Made by a program: the position numbers and the translations under genes. This document shows positions 20,359 to 61,526 of a DNA stretch of 64,000 nucleotides, piece by piece (the stretch's first letter is position 1; each line of letters starts with the position of its first letter). Origin of the DNA: Caldicellulosiruptor saccharolyticus DSM 8903 (GTDB taxonomy: Bacteria > Bacillota > Thermoanaerobacteria > Caldicellulosiruptorales > Caldicellulosiruptoraceae). The stretch lies in contig NC_009437.1 in NCBI RefSeq assembly GCF_000016545.1, positions 2,506,501-2,570,500 on the forward strand. Direction: 5' to 3'. Below the pieces are notes generated by a model that saw nothing but the letters and a program-made list of their open reading frames with translations, ran no database searches and had not been told where the DNA came from.

Positions 20359-22698
20359 TTACCATATATCATCTTTTTCTGATTCCTTAGGTGGTAACAA
20401 GCCCAACTCGTCGTCATAATCACAATTTAAAATGAATATACCCAGCTTTTTGCTATACTCACTCGCTCCACCTTTTGCGAAAAAGTACACCGGAACTGTA
20501 ACTGTGTACTTTCGAACAGCTGAAATTAGCTGCAGTTTCTCAACAGGGCTTAAAGATTTTGAACCTATTCTCTTCAGGCACTCTCTGATTGTTTCTTCAT
20601 TTACCTCGAATACCTTCCTCGGTATACCTTCAACTGTAACTACATCCCTAAAAATCTTTTGAGCTTCAATTTTTCTATCTGCTTTAAATCCTAACTTCAA
20701 AAGTTCATATGCTTTTTTGAAACTCTTCATGAAATTAGTGTTTGAAAGTGCCTCAACATCATAGGCATATTCATTTAGCTCTTTTTTGTCATATTCTGTA
20801 ATTCTTCTTCCGTCAAACTTTTTCAAAAACTCTTCTGTTCTAGTAACAATTTCTTTCTGATAAACTCTTCCAATTCCGCTTGGTTCCTTTGTTAGGATAA
20901 TAACATTTGGTTTTTGCCCCTCATATGGTCTTTTCCTGTATACTCTCCCCATTCGCTGCAGCAGTGAATCTGCAGAAGCCAGTTCCGTAAACAAAACGTC
21001 ATAATCTATGTCAAGTGACGCTTCTACAAGCTGGGTTGAAATTACAATACTATTTTTTCTCTGGTTTGAAAGAATAAAATGTTCTTTTTGCCTTCTTTGC
21101 CCTTCCAAAAATCTTGAATGCAAAAGTTCAACCGGAACATCATCAAAATTCTTTATGCTTTCTTTTATAGCCTTATAAACTTCCTGTGACCTTCTTACTG
21201 TGTTGCATATTACAAGTACATTCTGTTGCTTCCCACAATTTACAATTTCATCTACACAATCTAAAATAGAAAGTGGTTTGACCGAAACAACATGCGACCA
21301 GCATTTTTTTAATTCCTCATCTGAATATGCCTGTAAATATTCAGAAATATCTCCAAGATACTTTAGTACAAGAGGATTTACAGTAGCACTCATCAAGCAG
21401 AATCGTCCATTTAAATTTACTATTTCTTCTAACGTCTTTATTATAATTGCCAACGACTCTGGTGAATAGCTTTGTGGTTCATCAATTATAATCTTCGAGT
21501 ATAAAAATAACGAATATATTTTCTCAAAACCGGGCCATTTTAAAGCAGATGTAAAAATCTGGTCGCCGGTTGTTACAATTATTGGAAAACTTAAATTCCT
21601 CGCAAGGTTTACATTGTCAAATAAGGATTCTAACTCTTGGACATCTTCAGCTGATTGTGAATACTTTTCAAGCAGATAAATCATACTGTCAGAATGCAAT
21701 ATTCCAACCTTATCACTACCAAAAATTCTCACCAGTCTTTCGTACATTGCGTTGATTGAAACACGAATTGGAAGAGTGTAAATTAACTTGCTTCTGCCTG
21801 CCCAGTTTAAGCCAAACTCTGTCTTACCACTGCCTGTGGGAGCAAATAAAATAACATTCTGGGTTGAGAAATCTAAAGCTTTTAGCTGAAATTCTTTAAA
21901 ACCGGCAAAATTCCCTTTTTCTTTCAAGTAGCTCTCAACCTTATTTGAAAAATCGGTAATCTTTCCTTCTTCTGTACTAACTTCTGCAGAACTTGAATGA
22001 TCAAGTCTATGAAGAAAACCTTTTAAAAGAATTCTCATAATTGTGTTTTTATTGTAAAGGTCGGTATAACTTTTGAGCATGACCTCTTTCAACCAGTCAA
22101 TAGTTCTATATACATAGTTTGAACTCTTCTCTATTTCATCTTTGGTAGGAAATGAAGGAAGTTCTTTAAACAAAGGAAGTAATGTCTTGTTATTTAAATA
22201 CTTTGAAACATCTTCACAAATATATTTTTCAAAATATTGGTAGTTGAAATCAAAGCCCCTGTCATGCGAAAATGCAATAGCAAAAAGCAAATTTTCAAAA
22301 TCTTCTGGGCTGATATTCCCCTTGTCTATCTCATCTTCCAAATCCACAAAAGCTATTGAGATAAAGTTATGAGGTACCTCCACAGACAAACCCCTTACTT
22401 GAGGTACCTCATTTGATTTTGTCTTGTCTCTTATCTTTCTTTGAAAGTTTGAATTTGCCTTGCCCAAATCATGATATATTATTGCTAATTTTAGCAAATA
22501 TTTGAACCTCTCAAGGTCAATCTGAAGTTTTTGAAAACCTTCTTTGATCTCCTCTCTATACTCTTTGAATAATTTTTCCATATTCTGCAGTAGTGTCATT
22601 GTATGCTCGTATATTGTCTGGTATTCATAACCTTTCTCAGTTTTAAATCGCTTTGCGTAAAGTTCTATATCCTCATAGGCTTTCATACTCATCATCAC
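20359..22698 (-). CDS. cas3: Cas3 HD nuclease-helicase
   Basis: 779 residues. The N-terminal HD nuclease domain shows His in 'IYEHTM' (about 32), the HD pair in 'IIYHDLGKAN' (76-77), 'FSHDRGF' (145-146) and 'HRLDH' (230-234). The SF2 helicase follows: Walker A 'APTGSGKT' (286-293), a DEAD-like box written DEPQ (406-409), motif III 'LMSATV', and motif VI 'QRMGRVYRK' (581-589). It overlaps cas5 by 26 bp. Several ATG/GTG codons crowd the start ('MMMSMK'), so the exact initiation codon is uncertain by a few residues. It degrades DNA recruited by Cascade. Confidence 0.96.
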   Translation of the reverse strand: MMMSMKAYEDIELYAKRFKTEKGYEYQTIYEHTMTLLQNMEKLFKEYREEIKEGFQKLQIDLERFKYLLKLAIIYHDLGKANSNFQRKIRDKTKSNEVPQVRGLSVEVPHNFISIAFVDLEDEIDKGNISPEDFENLLFAIAFSHDRGFDFNYQYFEKYICEDVSKYLNNKTLLPLFKELPSFPTKDEIEKSSNYVYRTIDWLKEVMLKSYTDLYNKNTIMRILLKGFLHRLDHSSSAEVSTEEGKITDFSNKVESYLKEKGNFAGFKEFQLKALDFSTQNVILFAPTGSGKTEFGLNWAGRSKLIYTLPIRVSINAMYERLVRIFGSDKVGILHSDSMIYLLEKYSQSAEDVQELESLFDNVNLARNLSFPIIVTTGDQIFTSALKWPGFEKIYSLFLYSKIIIDEPQSYSPESLAIIIKTLEEIVNLNGRFCLMSATVNPLVLKYLGDISEYLQAYSDEELKKCWSHVVSVKPLSILDCVDEIVNCGKQQNVLVICNTVRRSQEVYKAIKESIKNFDDVPVELLHSRFLEGQRRQKEHFILSNQRKNSIVISTQLVEASLDIDYDVLFTELASADSLLQRMGRVYRKRPYEGQKPNVIILTKEPSGIGRVYQKEIVTRTEEFLKKFDGRRITEYDKKELNEYAYDVEALSNTNFMKSFKKAYELLKLGFKADRKIEAQKIFRDVVTVEGIPRKVFEVNEETIRECLKRIGSKSLSPVEKLQLISAVRKYTVTVPVYFFAKGGASEYSKKLGIFILNCDYDDELGLLPPKESEKDDIW

Positions 22699-59465: not shown

Positions 59466-60899
59466 TCAAAAATACAAATCCCTGTCACCTTGTCGTATCA
59501 TTTCAAGCCTTTTTTCTGTTTCTTTTCTCATCTTTTCATCTTTTATTTGATTTAAGCTATCATATATTAATTTCCTCCCAATTTCCTTAGTTTTCTCAGA
59601 ACCATAGTCCTCTAAGTATTCCATAAAAGTCAAAAGCGCATTTGGTGTGCAAAAGTCTTGAATATCACCTGTCTTTGCATATTGCATAAACAAATCCCCA
59701 GTTCTTCCTCTTCTGTAGCAAGCTGTACAGTAGCTTGGAATATAACCAGCCTCACAAAGAGTTCTTATTACCTCATCAGGACTTCTTTTGTCCTCAACTT
59801 CAAACTGTGCAAGGTCTTCATCTAAATCACCAGTCGATTTTCCTTGGTACTCAAGTGTATATCCACCAACACCTGTACAAGACCCAGCACTAATTTGAGA
59901 AATTCCAAGGTCAATTACCTCTTCTCTAAACCCAGGTCTTTCTCTTGTTGATAAAATCATGCCAGTGTAGGGCACAGCAAGTCGAATTATTGCAACAATT
60001 TTTTTGAACTCGTCATCAGATACTAAATATGGATATTTCTCTTTTGTCACCTCAACACCTTCGGCAGGTCTAATCCTTGGCACAGAAATTGTATGCGGTC
60101 CAACACCAAACCTTTCTTCTAAATGCTTTGCATGTAAAATCAATCCTACAACCTCAAACTTGTAATCATAAAGCCCAAACAAAACCCCTAAACCAACATC
60201 ATCAATTCCGCCTTGCATAGCTCTGTCCATTGCCATTGTATGCCAGTCATAGTCTGACTTTGGCCCCTCAGGGTGCATGTATTCATATGTTGGGCGATGA
60301 TATGTCTCTTGGAAAAGTACATATGTGCCAATTTTCGCTTCTTTTAACATTCTGTACTCTTCTATTGTTGTCGCTGCAATGTTTACATTCACTCTTCTGA
60401 TATTGCCTTTTTCTTTGTAAACAGAGTATATAGTGTTTATGGCATCTATAACATATTCAATTGGAGCTTCTTTGGGGTCTTCGCCAAGCTCAAGAGCAAT
60501 TCTTTTGTGCCCAAGAGATTCAATTATCTCAACCTCTTTTCGTATCTCATCCATAGTAAGTTTTCTTCTTTTCATTTTAGTGTTTGATCTGTGATAGCCA
60601 CAATAGCGGCAATTATTTACGCAAAAGTTGCTGATATAAAGCGGGGCAAAAAGAACAATTCTCTTTCCATAGATTCTTTCTTTTACCTGCTTTGCAGCTC
60701 TGAAAAGTTTTTCTAAAAGGTCTTTATCCTCCACATAAAGAAGCGCTGCAACCTCTTCTGGCTCAAGTCCGTGCAGATTCAATGCTTTTTGAATTATATC
60801 TTCTGCCCTATCTTGGTTTTGTTTTCCCTTTTCAAGAATTTCAAAAACCATCTCATCATTTATAAACTCAGCTCTTTCCCACTGGTCTTTTTTGAACAT
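59466..60899 (-). CDS. hydG: [FeFe]-hydrogenase maturase HydG
   Basis: About 477 residues from the ATG at 60899 (MFKKDQ); the frame continues 6 codons upstream. Radical-SAM cluster motif 'FCVNNCRYC' (CxxxCxxC), TIM barrel, and the C-terminal Cys cluster 'SYCTACYRRGRTG...DFC' that holds the second, dangler-iron cluster. It converts tyrosine to CO and cyanide for the H-cluster. It is co-transcribed with the small TM1266-type gene just upstream. Confidence 0.95.
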   Translation of the reverse strand: MFKKDQWERAEFINDEMVFEILEKGKQNQDRAEDIIQKALNLHGLEPEEVAALLYVEDKDLLEKLFRAAKQVKERIYGKRIVLFAPLYISNFCVNNCRYCGYHRSNTKMKRRKLTMDEIRKEVEIIESLGHKRIALELGEDPKEAPIEYVIDAINTIYSVYKEKGNIRRVNVNIAATTIEEYRMLKEAKIGTYVLFQETYHRPTYEYMHPEGPKSDYDWHTMAMDRAMQGGIDDVGLGVLFGLYDYKFEVVGLILHAKHLEERFGVGPHTISVPRIRPAEGVEVTKEKYPYLVSDDEFKKIVAIIRLAVPYTGMILSTRERPGFREEVIDLGISQISAGSCTGVGGYTLEYQGKSTGDLDEDLAQFEVEDKRSPDEVIRTLCEAGYIPSYCTACYRRGRTGDLFMQYAKTGDIQDFCTPNALLTFMEYLEDYGSEKTKEIGRKLIYDSLNQIKDEKMRKETEKRLEMIRQGDRDLYF

Positions 60900-60920
60900 T
60901 TTCAAACCACACTCCAATCT

Positions 60921-61166
60921 TTATTTTGTAAGAGCACTTTTTACCTTAACACCGCTCAAAGCACCAAGCTTTCCTGTGAGCGCACCAATCTCATCAGTTG
61001 TTCCATCAACTATTAGCGAGATTACACAAAGCCCTCTTTCTCTATACGGGATACCCATTCTGCCAACAATAATCTCACCATGTTCACTTAGGATTTTGTT
61101 GAGCTTATCTGACACCTCTTTTCTGTTTTCAACAACAATTCCAATAACACCAATTCTCCTTTCCAT
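60921..61166 (-). CDS. TM1266-type iron-only hydrogenase system regulator
   Basis: 81 residues with an ACT/ferredoxin-like fold: 'RRIGVIGIVVENRKEVSDKLNKILSEHGEIIVGRMGIPYRERGL' matches the small NikR-C/ACT-type proteins encoded next to hydrogenase maturases. Spacing to hydG is about 20 bp. The long structured leader upstream (61191-61323) suggests RNA-level control. Confidence 0.88.
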   Translation of the reverse strand: MERRIGVIGIVVENRKEVSDKLNKILSEHGEIIVGRMGIPYRERGLCVISLIVDGTTDEIGALTGKLGALSGVKVKSALTK

Positions 61167-61190: not shown

Positions 61191-61323
61191 AAAAATAAAA
61201 AATCCACCTCTCCTGACCTTTTACGTGTCCAAAGCCTCATCTTTAGCCAAAAGAGGTGGATATCTTTCTTTTCATCTTTCACATCCCCTCCTTATCAGGC
61301 CATTTTGCCCTCTAAGTCAGGAG
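61191..61323 (-). promoter_or_regulatory. Structured attenuator-like leader of the TM1266-hydG operon
   Basis: The minus-strand RNA can form a closing stem CTCCTGAC/GTCAGGAG (61316-61323 with 61210-61217), or an intrinsic terminator ATCCACCTCT/AGAGGTGGAT (61252-61261 with 61202-61211) followed by a U-run. The two stems overlap by 2 nt and cross, so they exclude each other. A leader peptide (MKRKISTSFG, 61243-61275) has an excellent AAGGAGGGG site, and its codons cover the 5' half of the terminator. A TATAAT at 61344-61349 provides a -10. I do not recognise a known riboswitch class. Confidence 0.6.
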
Positions 61324-61526
61324 CAAATATTTTATTTGTTAATATTATAACATACTTTTTAGAATATTAAAAGTGCACTATTGAGGATTTTTTCTTTTTT
61401 GTGAATTCAAGATGTGAGAAAGAAGGTTGTTGATATTATTTCATTTAAACAATAATTCAAATGATATATAATATAATAAACATGCTCAGCAATATTTTTT
61501 CCTTCTAAAAAAGGAGCTGGTTTTTT

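What the first reader, a model, noticed from the sequence alone, without database searches (positions are those of the whole stretch)
61191..61349. Unclassified attenuator or riboswitch before the hydrogenase maturation genes
A perfect 8-bp closing stem and a strong terminator exclude each other, and a leader peptide with a near-ideal ribosome site runs through the terminator's 5' arm. I could not match it to SAM, TPP, FMN, glycine, lysine, T-box, THF, ZTP, c-di-GMP or guanidine motifs. Since HydG consumes tyrosine and SAM, a metabolite or translation-sensing switch for H-cluster supply is attractive.
Basis: partly seen in the sequence, partly recalled or inferred. Interest (0 to 1): 0.6.

Follow-up and report, generated by a model that had tools for sequence, protein, structure and literature searches.

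The report
Hairpin switch for hydrogenase maturation genes
The stretch before the hydrogenase-maturation genes is a real RNA switch that can stop transcription early, and its core is a short, strongly conserved hairpin that turns up before hydrogenase-maturation genes in many other bacteria but is not in the public RNA-family library and has no description in the papers searched.

Summary
Confirmed and extended. The minus-strand leader of TM1266-hydG is a conserved attenuator in all 12 genomes searched of the genus. An 11-codon leader ORF, whose Shine-Dalgarno lies in M2's 3' strand, runs through the terminator's 5' arm and is in frame in 12/12 genomes. M2 recurs before TM1266, hydG, hydE, hydF and an ECF-transporter gene in about 45 genera, with strong covariation. 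Rfam 15 has no match. Among HydG-bearing genomes, M2 occurs in 70/183 with TM1266 and 0/29 without; it also precedes TM1266 in three genomes lacking HydG and HydF. I therefore favour TM1266, a NikR-C-like "regulator" of unknown target, as the factor that binds M2, over an H-cluster metabolite; neither is shown. The promoter's Rex site matches one already validated in C. bescii. P1 was seen only in this genus.

The parts
61337..61352 (-). Rex-type operator TGTTATAATATTAACA overlapping the -10 box (TATAAT, 61349-61344)
   Evidence: Arms invariant in 12/12 genus leaders, and TGTTA-N6-TAACA also before the two Mahella-type homologues. The genome encodes Rex. Rex binds the orthologous site 181 bp before Athe_0168 in C. 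bescii (PMC6391272).
61284..61322 (-). M2 hairpin: UCCU-GA-CUUA-GA-GGGC..GCCU-GA-UAAG-GA-GGGG, two tandem-GA loops; the proposed sensor or binding site
   Evidence: CM R2 39.6 bits, next best in the window 10.6. Covariation across leaders.
61316..61323 (-).
   Evidence: Invariant TCCTGAC in 12/12.
61210..61217 (-). 3' arm of P1 (GTCAGGAG), at the base of the terminator 3' arm
   Evidence: Invariant in 12/12 although its terminator partner (alignment columns 94-95) varies. Missing in L034 and L036.
61283..61291 (-). P3 antiterminator helix, 5' strand (GGAGGGGAU); overlaps the M2 3' strand and the leader SD; pairs with 61261-61252, A61257 bulged
   Evidence: Folding path of growing transcripts. 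The same pairing with different bases in L034 and L036 (seen by inspection; duplex energies).
61287..61293 (-). Shine-Dalgarno of the leader ORF (AAGGAGG), inside the M2 3' strand
   Evidence: Sequence. ATG is enriched 9-18 nt after M2 across 99 hits: 35% against 4-19% in other windows.
61243..61275 (-). Leader ORF MKRKISTSFG-stop, running through the terminator 5' arm
   Evidence: In frame in 12/12. The stop is kept as TAA or TGA while the preceding codon varies (GGC, GAC, GTT, GGA, GAT).
61191..61261 (-). Intrinsic terminator: arms 61261-61252 and 61211-61202, extended inward, then a T-tract
   Evidence: The core pairs are conserved in the 12 genomes apart from the outermost one.
60921..61166 (-). 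TM1266-family gene, first gene of the operon
   Evidence: TIGR03959, 119.9 bits against a cut-off of 60.8; PF21699; weaker NikR_C PF08753.
59466..60917 (-). hydG
   Evidence: TIGR03955, 661.5 bits.

Best explanation
The leader is a three-state transcription attenuator whose switch point is hairpin M2. (1) Transcription starts at a Rex-controlled promoter. (2) M2 folds first; its 3' strand contains the Shine-Dalgarno of the leader ORF. (3) If M2 is held closed, the leader ORF is not translated, its purine-rich strand cannot pair with the terminator 5' arm, the terminator forms and TM1266-hydG is off. (4) If M2 is not held, its outer helix gives way to P3 and P1, which keep the terminator 5' arm busy, and a ribosome on the leader ORF also covers that arm; RNA polymerase reads through. 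(5) What holds M2 closed is inferred: most likely the TM1266 protein itself, acting as an autogenous RNA-binding repressor that in other genomes also controls hydE, hydF, hydG and a transporter gene through the same hairpin. The pseudo-twofold symmetry of M2 would suit a symmetric oligomer. Shown by comparison or computation: the parts, their conservation, their mutual exclusion, the coding signature of the leader ORF, and the spread and co-occurrence of M2. Inferred: the direction (closed = off) and TM1266 as ligand.
For: M2 covariation: 32 double-change cells against 11+-2.4 shuffled in the seed, 113 against 39 in 64 hits, 75 against 24.5 in 32 hits from named genomes, 0/500 shuffles each time. 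MFEs of growing transcripts go through M2, P3, P1+P3+inner M2, and finally M2+terminator. Leader ORF 12/12. M2 precedes HydG, HydE, HydF and an ECF S component; in L173 and L196 the M2 3' strand is the gene's own SD, which supports closed = off. M2 in HydG+ genomes: 70/183 with TM1266, 0/29 without (Fisher 6e-6, genomes not independent). M2 before TM1266 in three genomes with no HydG and no HydF over cut-off. C. bescii rex deletion does not raise expression of this operon (log2 -0.21 to -0.27; PMC6391272), compatible with a second control below the promoter.
Against: No experiment shows attenuation or RNA binding by TM1266. Many genomes have TM1266 without a detectable M2 (for example most of f3, and G012), so TM1266 does something without it. 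Pairing of the M2 3' strand with the terminator arm is clear in Caldicellulosiruptor, Mahella-type and several others, but over 38 leaders it is only weakly better than mismatched controls (mean rank about 0.42), so the downstream wiring differs between lineages. Co-occurrence was compared by hand from listed handles, and related genomes are not independent. ViennaRNA does not model pseudoknots, and the folds were made at 37 C although the organism appears to be an extreme thermophile.
Confidence: 0.45

Rival explanations
1. M2 is the aptamer of a riboswitch for a small molecule or ion of the H-cluster pathway (or for the TM1266 ligand). Binding closes M2 and shuts expression off; the ECF transporter gene under M2 would import the ligand or a precursor.
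For: Near-invariant internal-loop nucleotides and flanking G-U pairs with a covarying middle helix look like an aptamer. Associated genes are hydE, hydF, hydG and an ECF S component. The expression-platform logic (terminator or SD) is typical of riboswitches.
Against: M2 is absent from all 29 HydG genomes lacking TM1266 and present before TM1266 in three genomes without HydG or HydF, which an H-cluster metabolite alone does not predict. M2 is small (about 36 nt) for an aptamer, and its symmetry suits a protein oligomer.
Confidence: 0.3
2. A purely translation-sensing attenuator: the leader ribosome itself is the sensor (arrest or pausing at STSF[GDV]-stop), and M2 is only a device to delay or meter leader translation.
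For: The leader ORF is under selection in the genus and short ORFs overlapping the terminator occur elsewhere (e.g. MSTRL*, MRGYC*, MERLCTLKAFPPGG*).
Against: M2 is conserved where the leader ORF is not evident (L034) and where it sits directly on a gene's own SD (L173, L196). The peptide carries no run of Tyr, Met or any one codon, and its conserved residues are fully explained by the paired terminator arm.
Confidence: 0.12
3. M2 is bound by some other RNA-binding protein, or is a processing or stability element.
For: Protein-binding hairpins with internal loops are common (general knowledge), and no factor is identified here.
Against: Does not explain why M2 tracks TM1266.
Confidence: 0.1

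Closest known systems
Autogenous RNA-binding attenuation proteins (e.g. B. subtilis PyrR; recalled, not tested)
   Same: A small regulator encoded first in its own operon would bind a leader hairpin overlapping an antiterminator, so that the terminator forms.
   Different: No relation known to me. TM1266 resembles the NikR C-terminal domain (PDB 2NZC), and binding is unproven here.
Terminator riboswitches in Rfam (SAM, TPP, Moco and others)
   Same: A conserved structured domain that excludes an antiterminator, upstream of cofactor-biosynthesis genes.
   Different: No Rfam family matches at the gathering score in the window, or in 20 homologous leaders apart from two hits elsewhere.
Leader-peptide attenuators (trp/his type, tnaC; recalled)
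   Same: A short translated ORF overlaps the terminator 5' arm.
   Different: No regulatory codon run; the leader's SD is buried in an independently conserved hairpin.
Rex regulon in Caldicellulosiruptor (PMC6391272)
   Same: The promoter operator of the orthologous operon is an experimentally bound Rex site.
   Different: Rex acts at initiation. The RNA switch is downstream, and I did not find it mentioned in the passages read.

Membership tests
Any of 4227 Rfam 15 families | Covariance score at or above the family's gathering threshold | tested here: not met
   Window: 0 matches; best-scoring sub-threshold match PyrG_leader 20.5 bits against 65. 20 homologous leader loci: only TPP in L068 and TwoAYGGAY in L066:1841-1906 (beyond TM1266), not at M2. 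Six leaders at E up to 2: one weak sRNA hit.
The M2 family defined here | Score to CM R2 and position upstream of TM1266 or hyd genes | tested here: met
   61322-61284, 39.6 bits, E 1.4e-6 in the window; the window sequence was one of 18 seeds. In 80 named TM1266 loci, 25 hits lie 29-237 nt before TM1266 (P 1e-36).
Intrinsic terminator attenuator | Terminator and antiterminator that exclude each other, before the first gene | tested here: met
   by folding only, no termination assay.
Amino-acid leader-peptide attenuator (trp type) | Leader ORF rich in codons for the regulated amino acid | tested here: not met
   Leader peptides in 12 genomes have no Tyr; no repeated regulatory codon.
Rex operator | Inverted repeat TGTTA-N6-TAACA at the promoter, and Rex in the genome | tested here: met
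   binding shown for the C. bescii orthologue (PMC6391272).
TM1266-bound RNA | Direct binding of TM1266 to M2 | not testable with these tools
   Only co-occurrence tested: 70/183 against 0/29.
Metabolite riboswitch | Direct binding of a small ligand | not testable with these tools
   Gene context only.

The most novel reading that the evidence does not exclude
TM1266, annotated as a putative hydrogenase-system regulator without a known target, is a ligand-sensing RNA-binding protein. It represses its own mRNA and those of hydE, hydF, hydG and a transporter by clamping a pseudo-symmetric tandem-GA hairpin that either hides a ribosome site or lets a terminator form: a regulatory RNA-protein pair spread over several phyla.
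Probability: 0.38. Interest if true: 0.85.

Novelty: new variant of a known kind. Interest (0 to 1): 0.72.

Why it matters
[FeFe]-hydrogenase maturation is well studied chemically, but little is known of its regulation: the C. bescii Rex paper states that the regulon of this regulator (called CopG there) "remains unknown and unpredicted" (PMC6391272). A covarying RNA element shared by TM1266, hydE, hydF, hydG and a transporter gene gives TM1266 a concrete, testable target, or else defines a new riboswitch class. It would also be a handle for tuning hydrogen output in thermophiles.

Tried and rejected
(1) Known Rfam families: none. (3) CM R1, built from the genus alone, reached only two more genomes convincingly; its weaker hits (L026-L028, L035, L037-L042) look spurious. 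(4) A universal M2-terminator pairing: only weakly supported. (5) ANTAR-type dual hexaloop hairpins: considered and dropped because the M2 loop varies in length and sequence; the comparison rests on memory. (6) Coding-region hits L200 and L201 (G333, G301) set aside as false. (7) Literature searches for riboswitches or attenuators at hydG/hydE or TM1266: nothing relevant. The passages searched in the 26- and 50-genome RNA discovery papers mention no hydrogenase motif; their supplements could not be read.

Full report
Setting. The window lies in a single-contig genome of 2,970,275 bases; that size matches my memory of Caldicellulosiruptor saccharolyticus, and the sequence evidence does not contradict it. 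On the minus strand, TM1266 (60921-61166; TIGR03959) is followed by hydG (59466-60917; TIGR03955). The finding is the roughly 180-nt leader of this operon.

Observation. The leader folds to -56.2 kcal/mol against -33.7+-3.4 for shuffles. The sequence occurs once in the genome and once in each of the 12 genus genomes searched (own genome included), at 71-100% identity. The alignment shows near-invariant blocks separated by variable ones.

Leader ORF. MKRKISTSFG-stop here; elsewhere for example METAKIRFVSTSFD, MKSARIRLVSTSFG and MMLKRKAMSTSFD. The variable 5' half changes length and start codon (ATG, GTG, TTG), yet a start lies 4-11 nt after AGGAGG in the right frame in 12/12. Shuffled segments reach at most 6/12 in 5000 trials, and the other frames give 1/12. 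The stop is TAA or TGA although the codon before it varies. So the ORF is very likely translated. Its STSF residues are encoded by the paired terminator arm, so their conservation alone proves nothing about the peptide.

The missed hairpin. The consensus fold shows an extended hairpin, UCCU-GA-CUUA-GA-GGGC-loop-GCCU-GA-UAAG-GA-GGGG (61322-61284), here called M2. Each strand reads CCUGA-N4-RAGGG, so the hairpin is nearly its own dyad, with two tandem-GA loops, each next to a U-G pair. A model of the genus leader (R1) found the same hairpin before TM1266 in two genomes of another family of the class (G013, G014; probably Mahella, judging from a named Mahella relative). There M2, a terminator, the Rex-type palindrome and the M2-to-terminator pairing persist in changed sequence, while the 3' arm of P1 is gone.

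Spread. I took the regions upstream of TM1266 from a sample of 398 genomes of the phylum (TM1266 in 213). In 94 distinct upstream regions (genus included), 32 hold a CCUGA-helix-RAGGG module, against 0.5% of shuffles. A seed alignment of 18 M2 hairpins gave 89.7% paired cells and 32 double-change cells against 11+-2.4. The resulting model R2 found hits in 75 of 398 genomes, 47 genera; two of these hits (two genera) lie inside reading frames and are set aside. Sixty-four distinct hits in fetched loci give 113 double-change cells against 39+-5, and 32 hits in 80 named TM1266 loci give 75 against 24.5+-4.4; these two alignments are fitted to the model and lean towards it. Named carriers include Caldicoprobacter algeriensis, Dethiosulfatibacter aminovorans, Tepidibacter mesophilus, Fervidicella metallireducens, Desulfotomaculum copahuensis and a Desulfosporosinus, and metagenome bins labelled Syntrophus, Deltaproteobacteria, Auribacterota, Lentisphaerae and Actinomycetota (bins may be mislabelled, and weaker ones score E up to 0.1). 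In the named loci 25 hits lie 29-237 nt before TM1266 on its strand.

Genes under M2. Beyond TM1266, downstream genes are HydG (L174, L183, L202 by HMM), HydE (L176, L178, L184, L197), HydF (L187) and an ECF transporter S component (L173, L196; PF12822); further HydG and HydE cases rest on sequence inspection. In the ECF cases the M2 3' strand (AAGGGGGAA) is the gene's own Shine-Dalgarno. Over 99 hits, ATG is enriched 9-18 nt after M2 (35% against 4-19% in other windows): M2 tends to sit on a ribosome site, of a gene or of a short ORF.

How the window element works. MFE structures of growing transcripts run: M2 alone (polymerase at 61283-61259); P3, pairing GGAGGGGAU with the future terminator 5' arm (61253-61223); back to M2 at 61217; P1+P3+inner M2 as a three-way antiterminator (61211-61205); then M2+terminator once the terminator 3' arm is complete (61199). 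P1 and the terminator cannot coexist without a pseudoknot. P1's 3' arm stays invariant while its terminator partner varies, which argues that P1 itself is used in this genus. Anything that holds M2 closed should favour termination and hide the leader's ribosome site; anything that opens M2, including a leader ribosome, should favour read-through. Over 38 leaders the M2-terminator pairing is only weakly better than mismatched controls, so I claim it for this genus and some relatives, not for all.

What is the signal? Of 212 HydG-bearing genomes in the sample, M2 is in 70 of 183 that have TM1266 and in 0 of 29 (18 families) that do not (Fisher 6e-6; relatedness not corrected; sets compared by hand). 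Upstream of hydG in 19 of those 29 there is no R2 match even at E 5. Family f70 holds both kinds and follows the rule (G240 and G393 against G130 and G310). Conversely, three genomes have M2 directly before TM1266 and genes for a binding protein and a permease (typed by HMM in L181 as NMT1-like and BPD_transp_1; by likeness in the others), but no HydG at E 0.001 and no HydF above its cut-off. M2 thus tracks TM1266 rather than the H-cluster pathway. TM1266 resembles the NikR regulatory domain without a DNA-binding part, and a relative has a solved structure, 2NZC, named only "Hypothetical protein". An autogenous RNA-binding regulator fits these facts best; a small-molecule riboswitch remains a serious rival.

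Promoter. TGTTATAATATTAACA (61352-61337) overlaps the -10 and is kept in 12/12 (one middle base differs in one genome). The orthologous site in C. bescii, 181 bp before the ATG, binds Rex in vitro, yet deleting rex did not raise this operon (log2 -0.21 to -0.27; significance shading not readable in the text held) (PMC6391272). That leaves room for a control below the promoter. The same paper states that the regulon of this regulator is unknown.

Novelty. No Rfam 15 match and no paper found in the library searched; subscription papers and supplements were not available, so a prior description cannot be excluded. I rate it a new family within the known kind of cis-regulatory leader RNAs.

Noticed in passing
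L173:301-833, L196:301-833 (genomes G279, G073): An ECF-transporter S component (PF12822) has M2 directly over its Shine-Dalgarno; a possible lead to the ligand.
   Followed up: partly
L181:300-2364, and L182, L189, L195: M2 precedes TM1266 followed by a substrate-binding protein (NMT1-like in L181) and a permease; three of these four genomes lack HydG.
   Followed up: partly
L125, L128, L130, L132, L137, L060, L066, L106, L114: A second hairpin (M1: CCUGA-long helix-RAGGG) lies upstream of M2 in many leaders; the window leader has no M1.
   Followed up: partly
L190, L192, L199: Short ORFs after M2 end in the same peptide ...AFPPGG-stop and run through what looks like a terminator stem, another case of leader ORF overlapping a terminator.
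   Followed up: no
L066:1841-1906: A TwoAYGGAY RNA (RF01731) lies just beyond TM1266 in a genome whose TM1266 leader carries M1/M2-like hairpins.
   Followed up: no
L185:3566-3602 (genome G184): A convincing M2 with terminator precedes an uncharacterised 185-aa protein without a Pfam match.
   Followed up: partly
window 20890-20905, minus strand: A second TGTTA-N6-TAACA palindrome lies near what look like CRISPR-associated genes; probably chance.
   Followed up: partly
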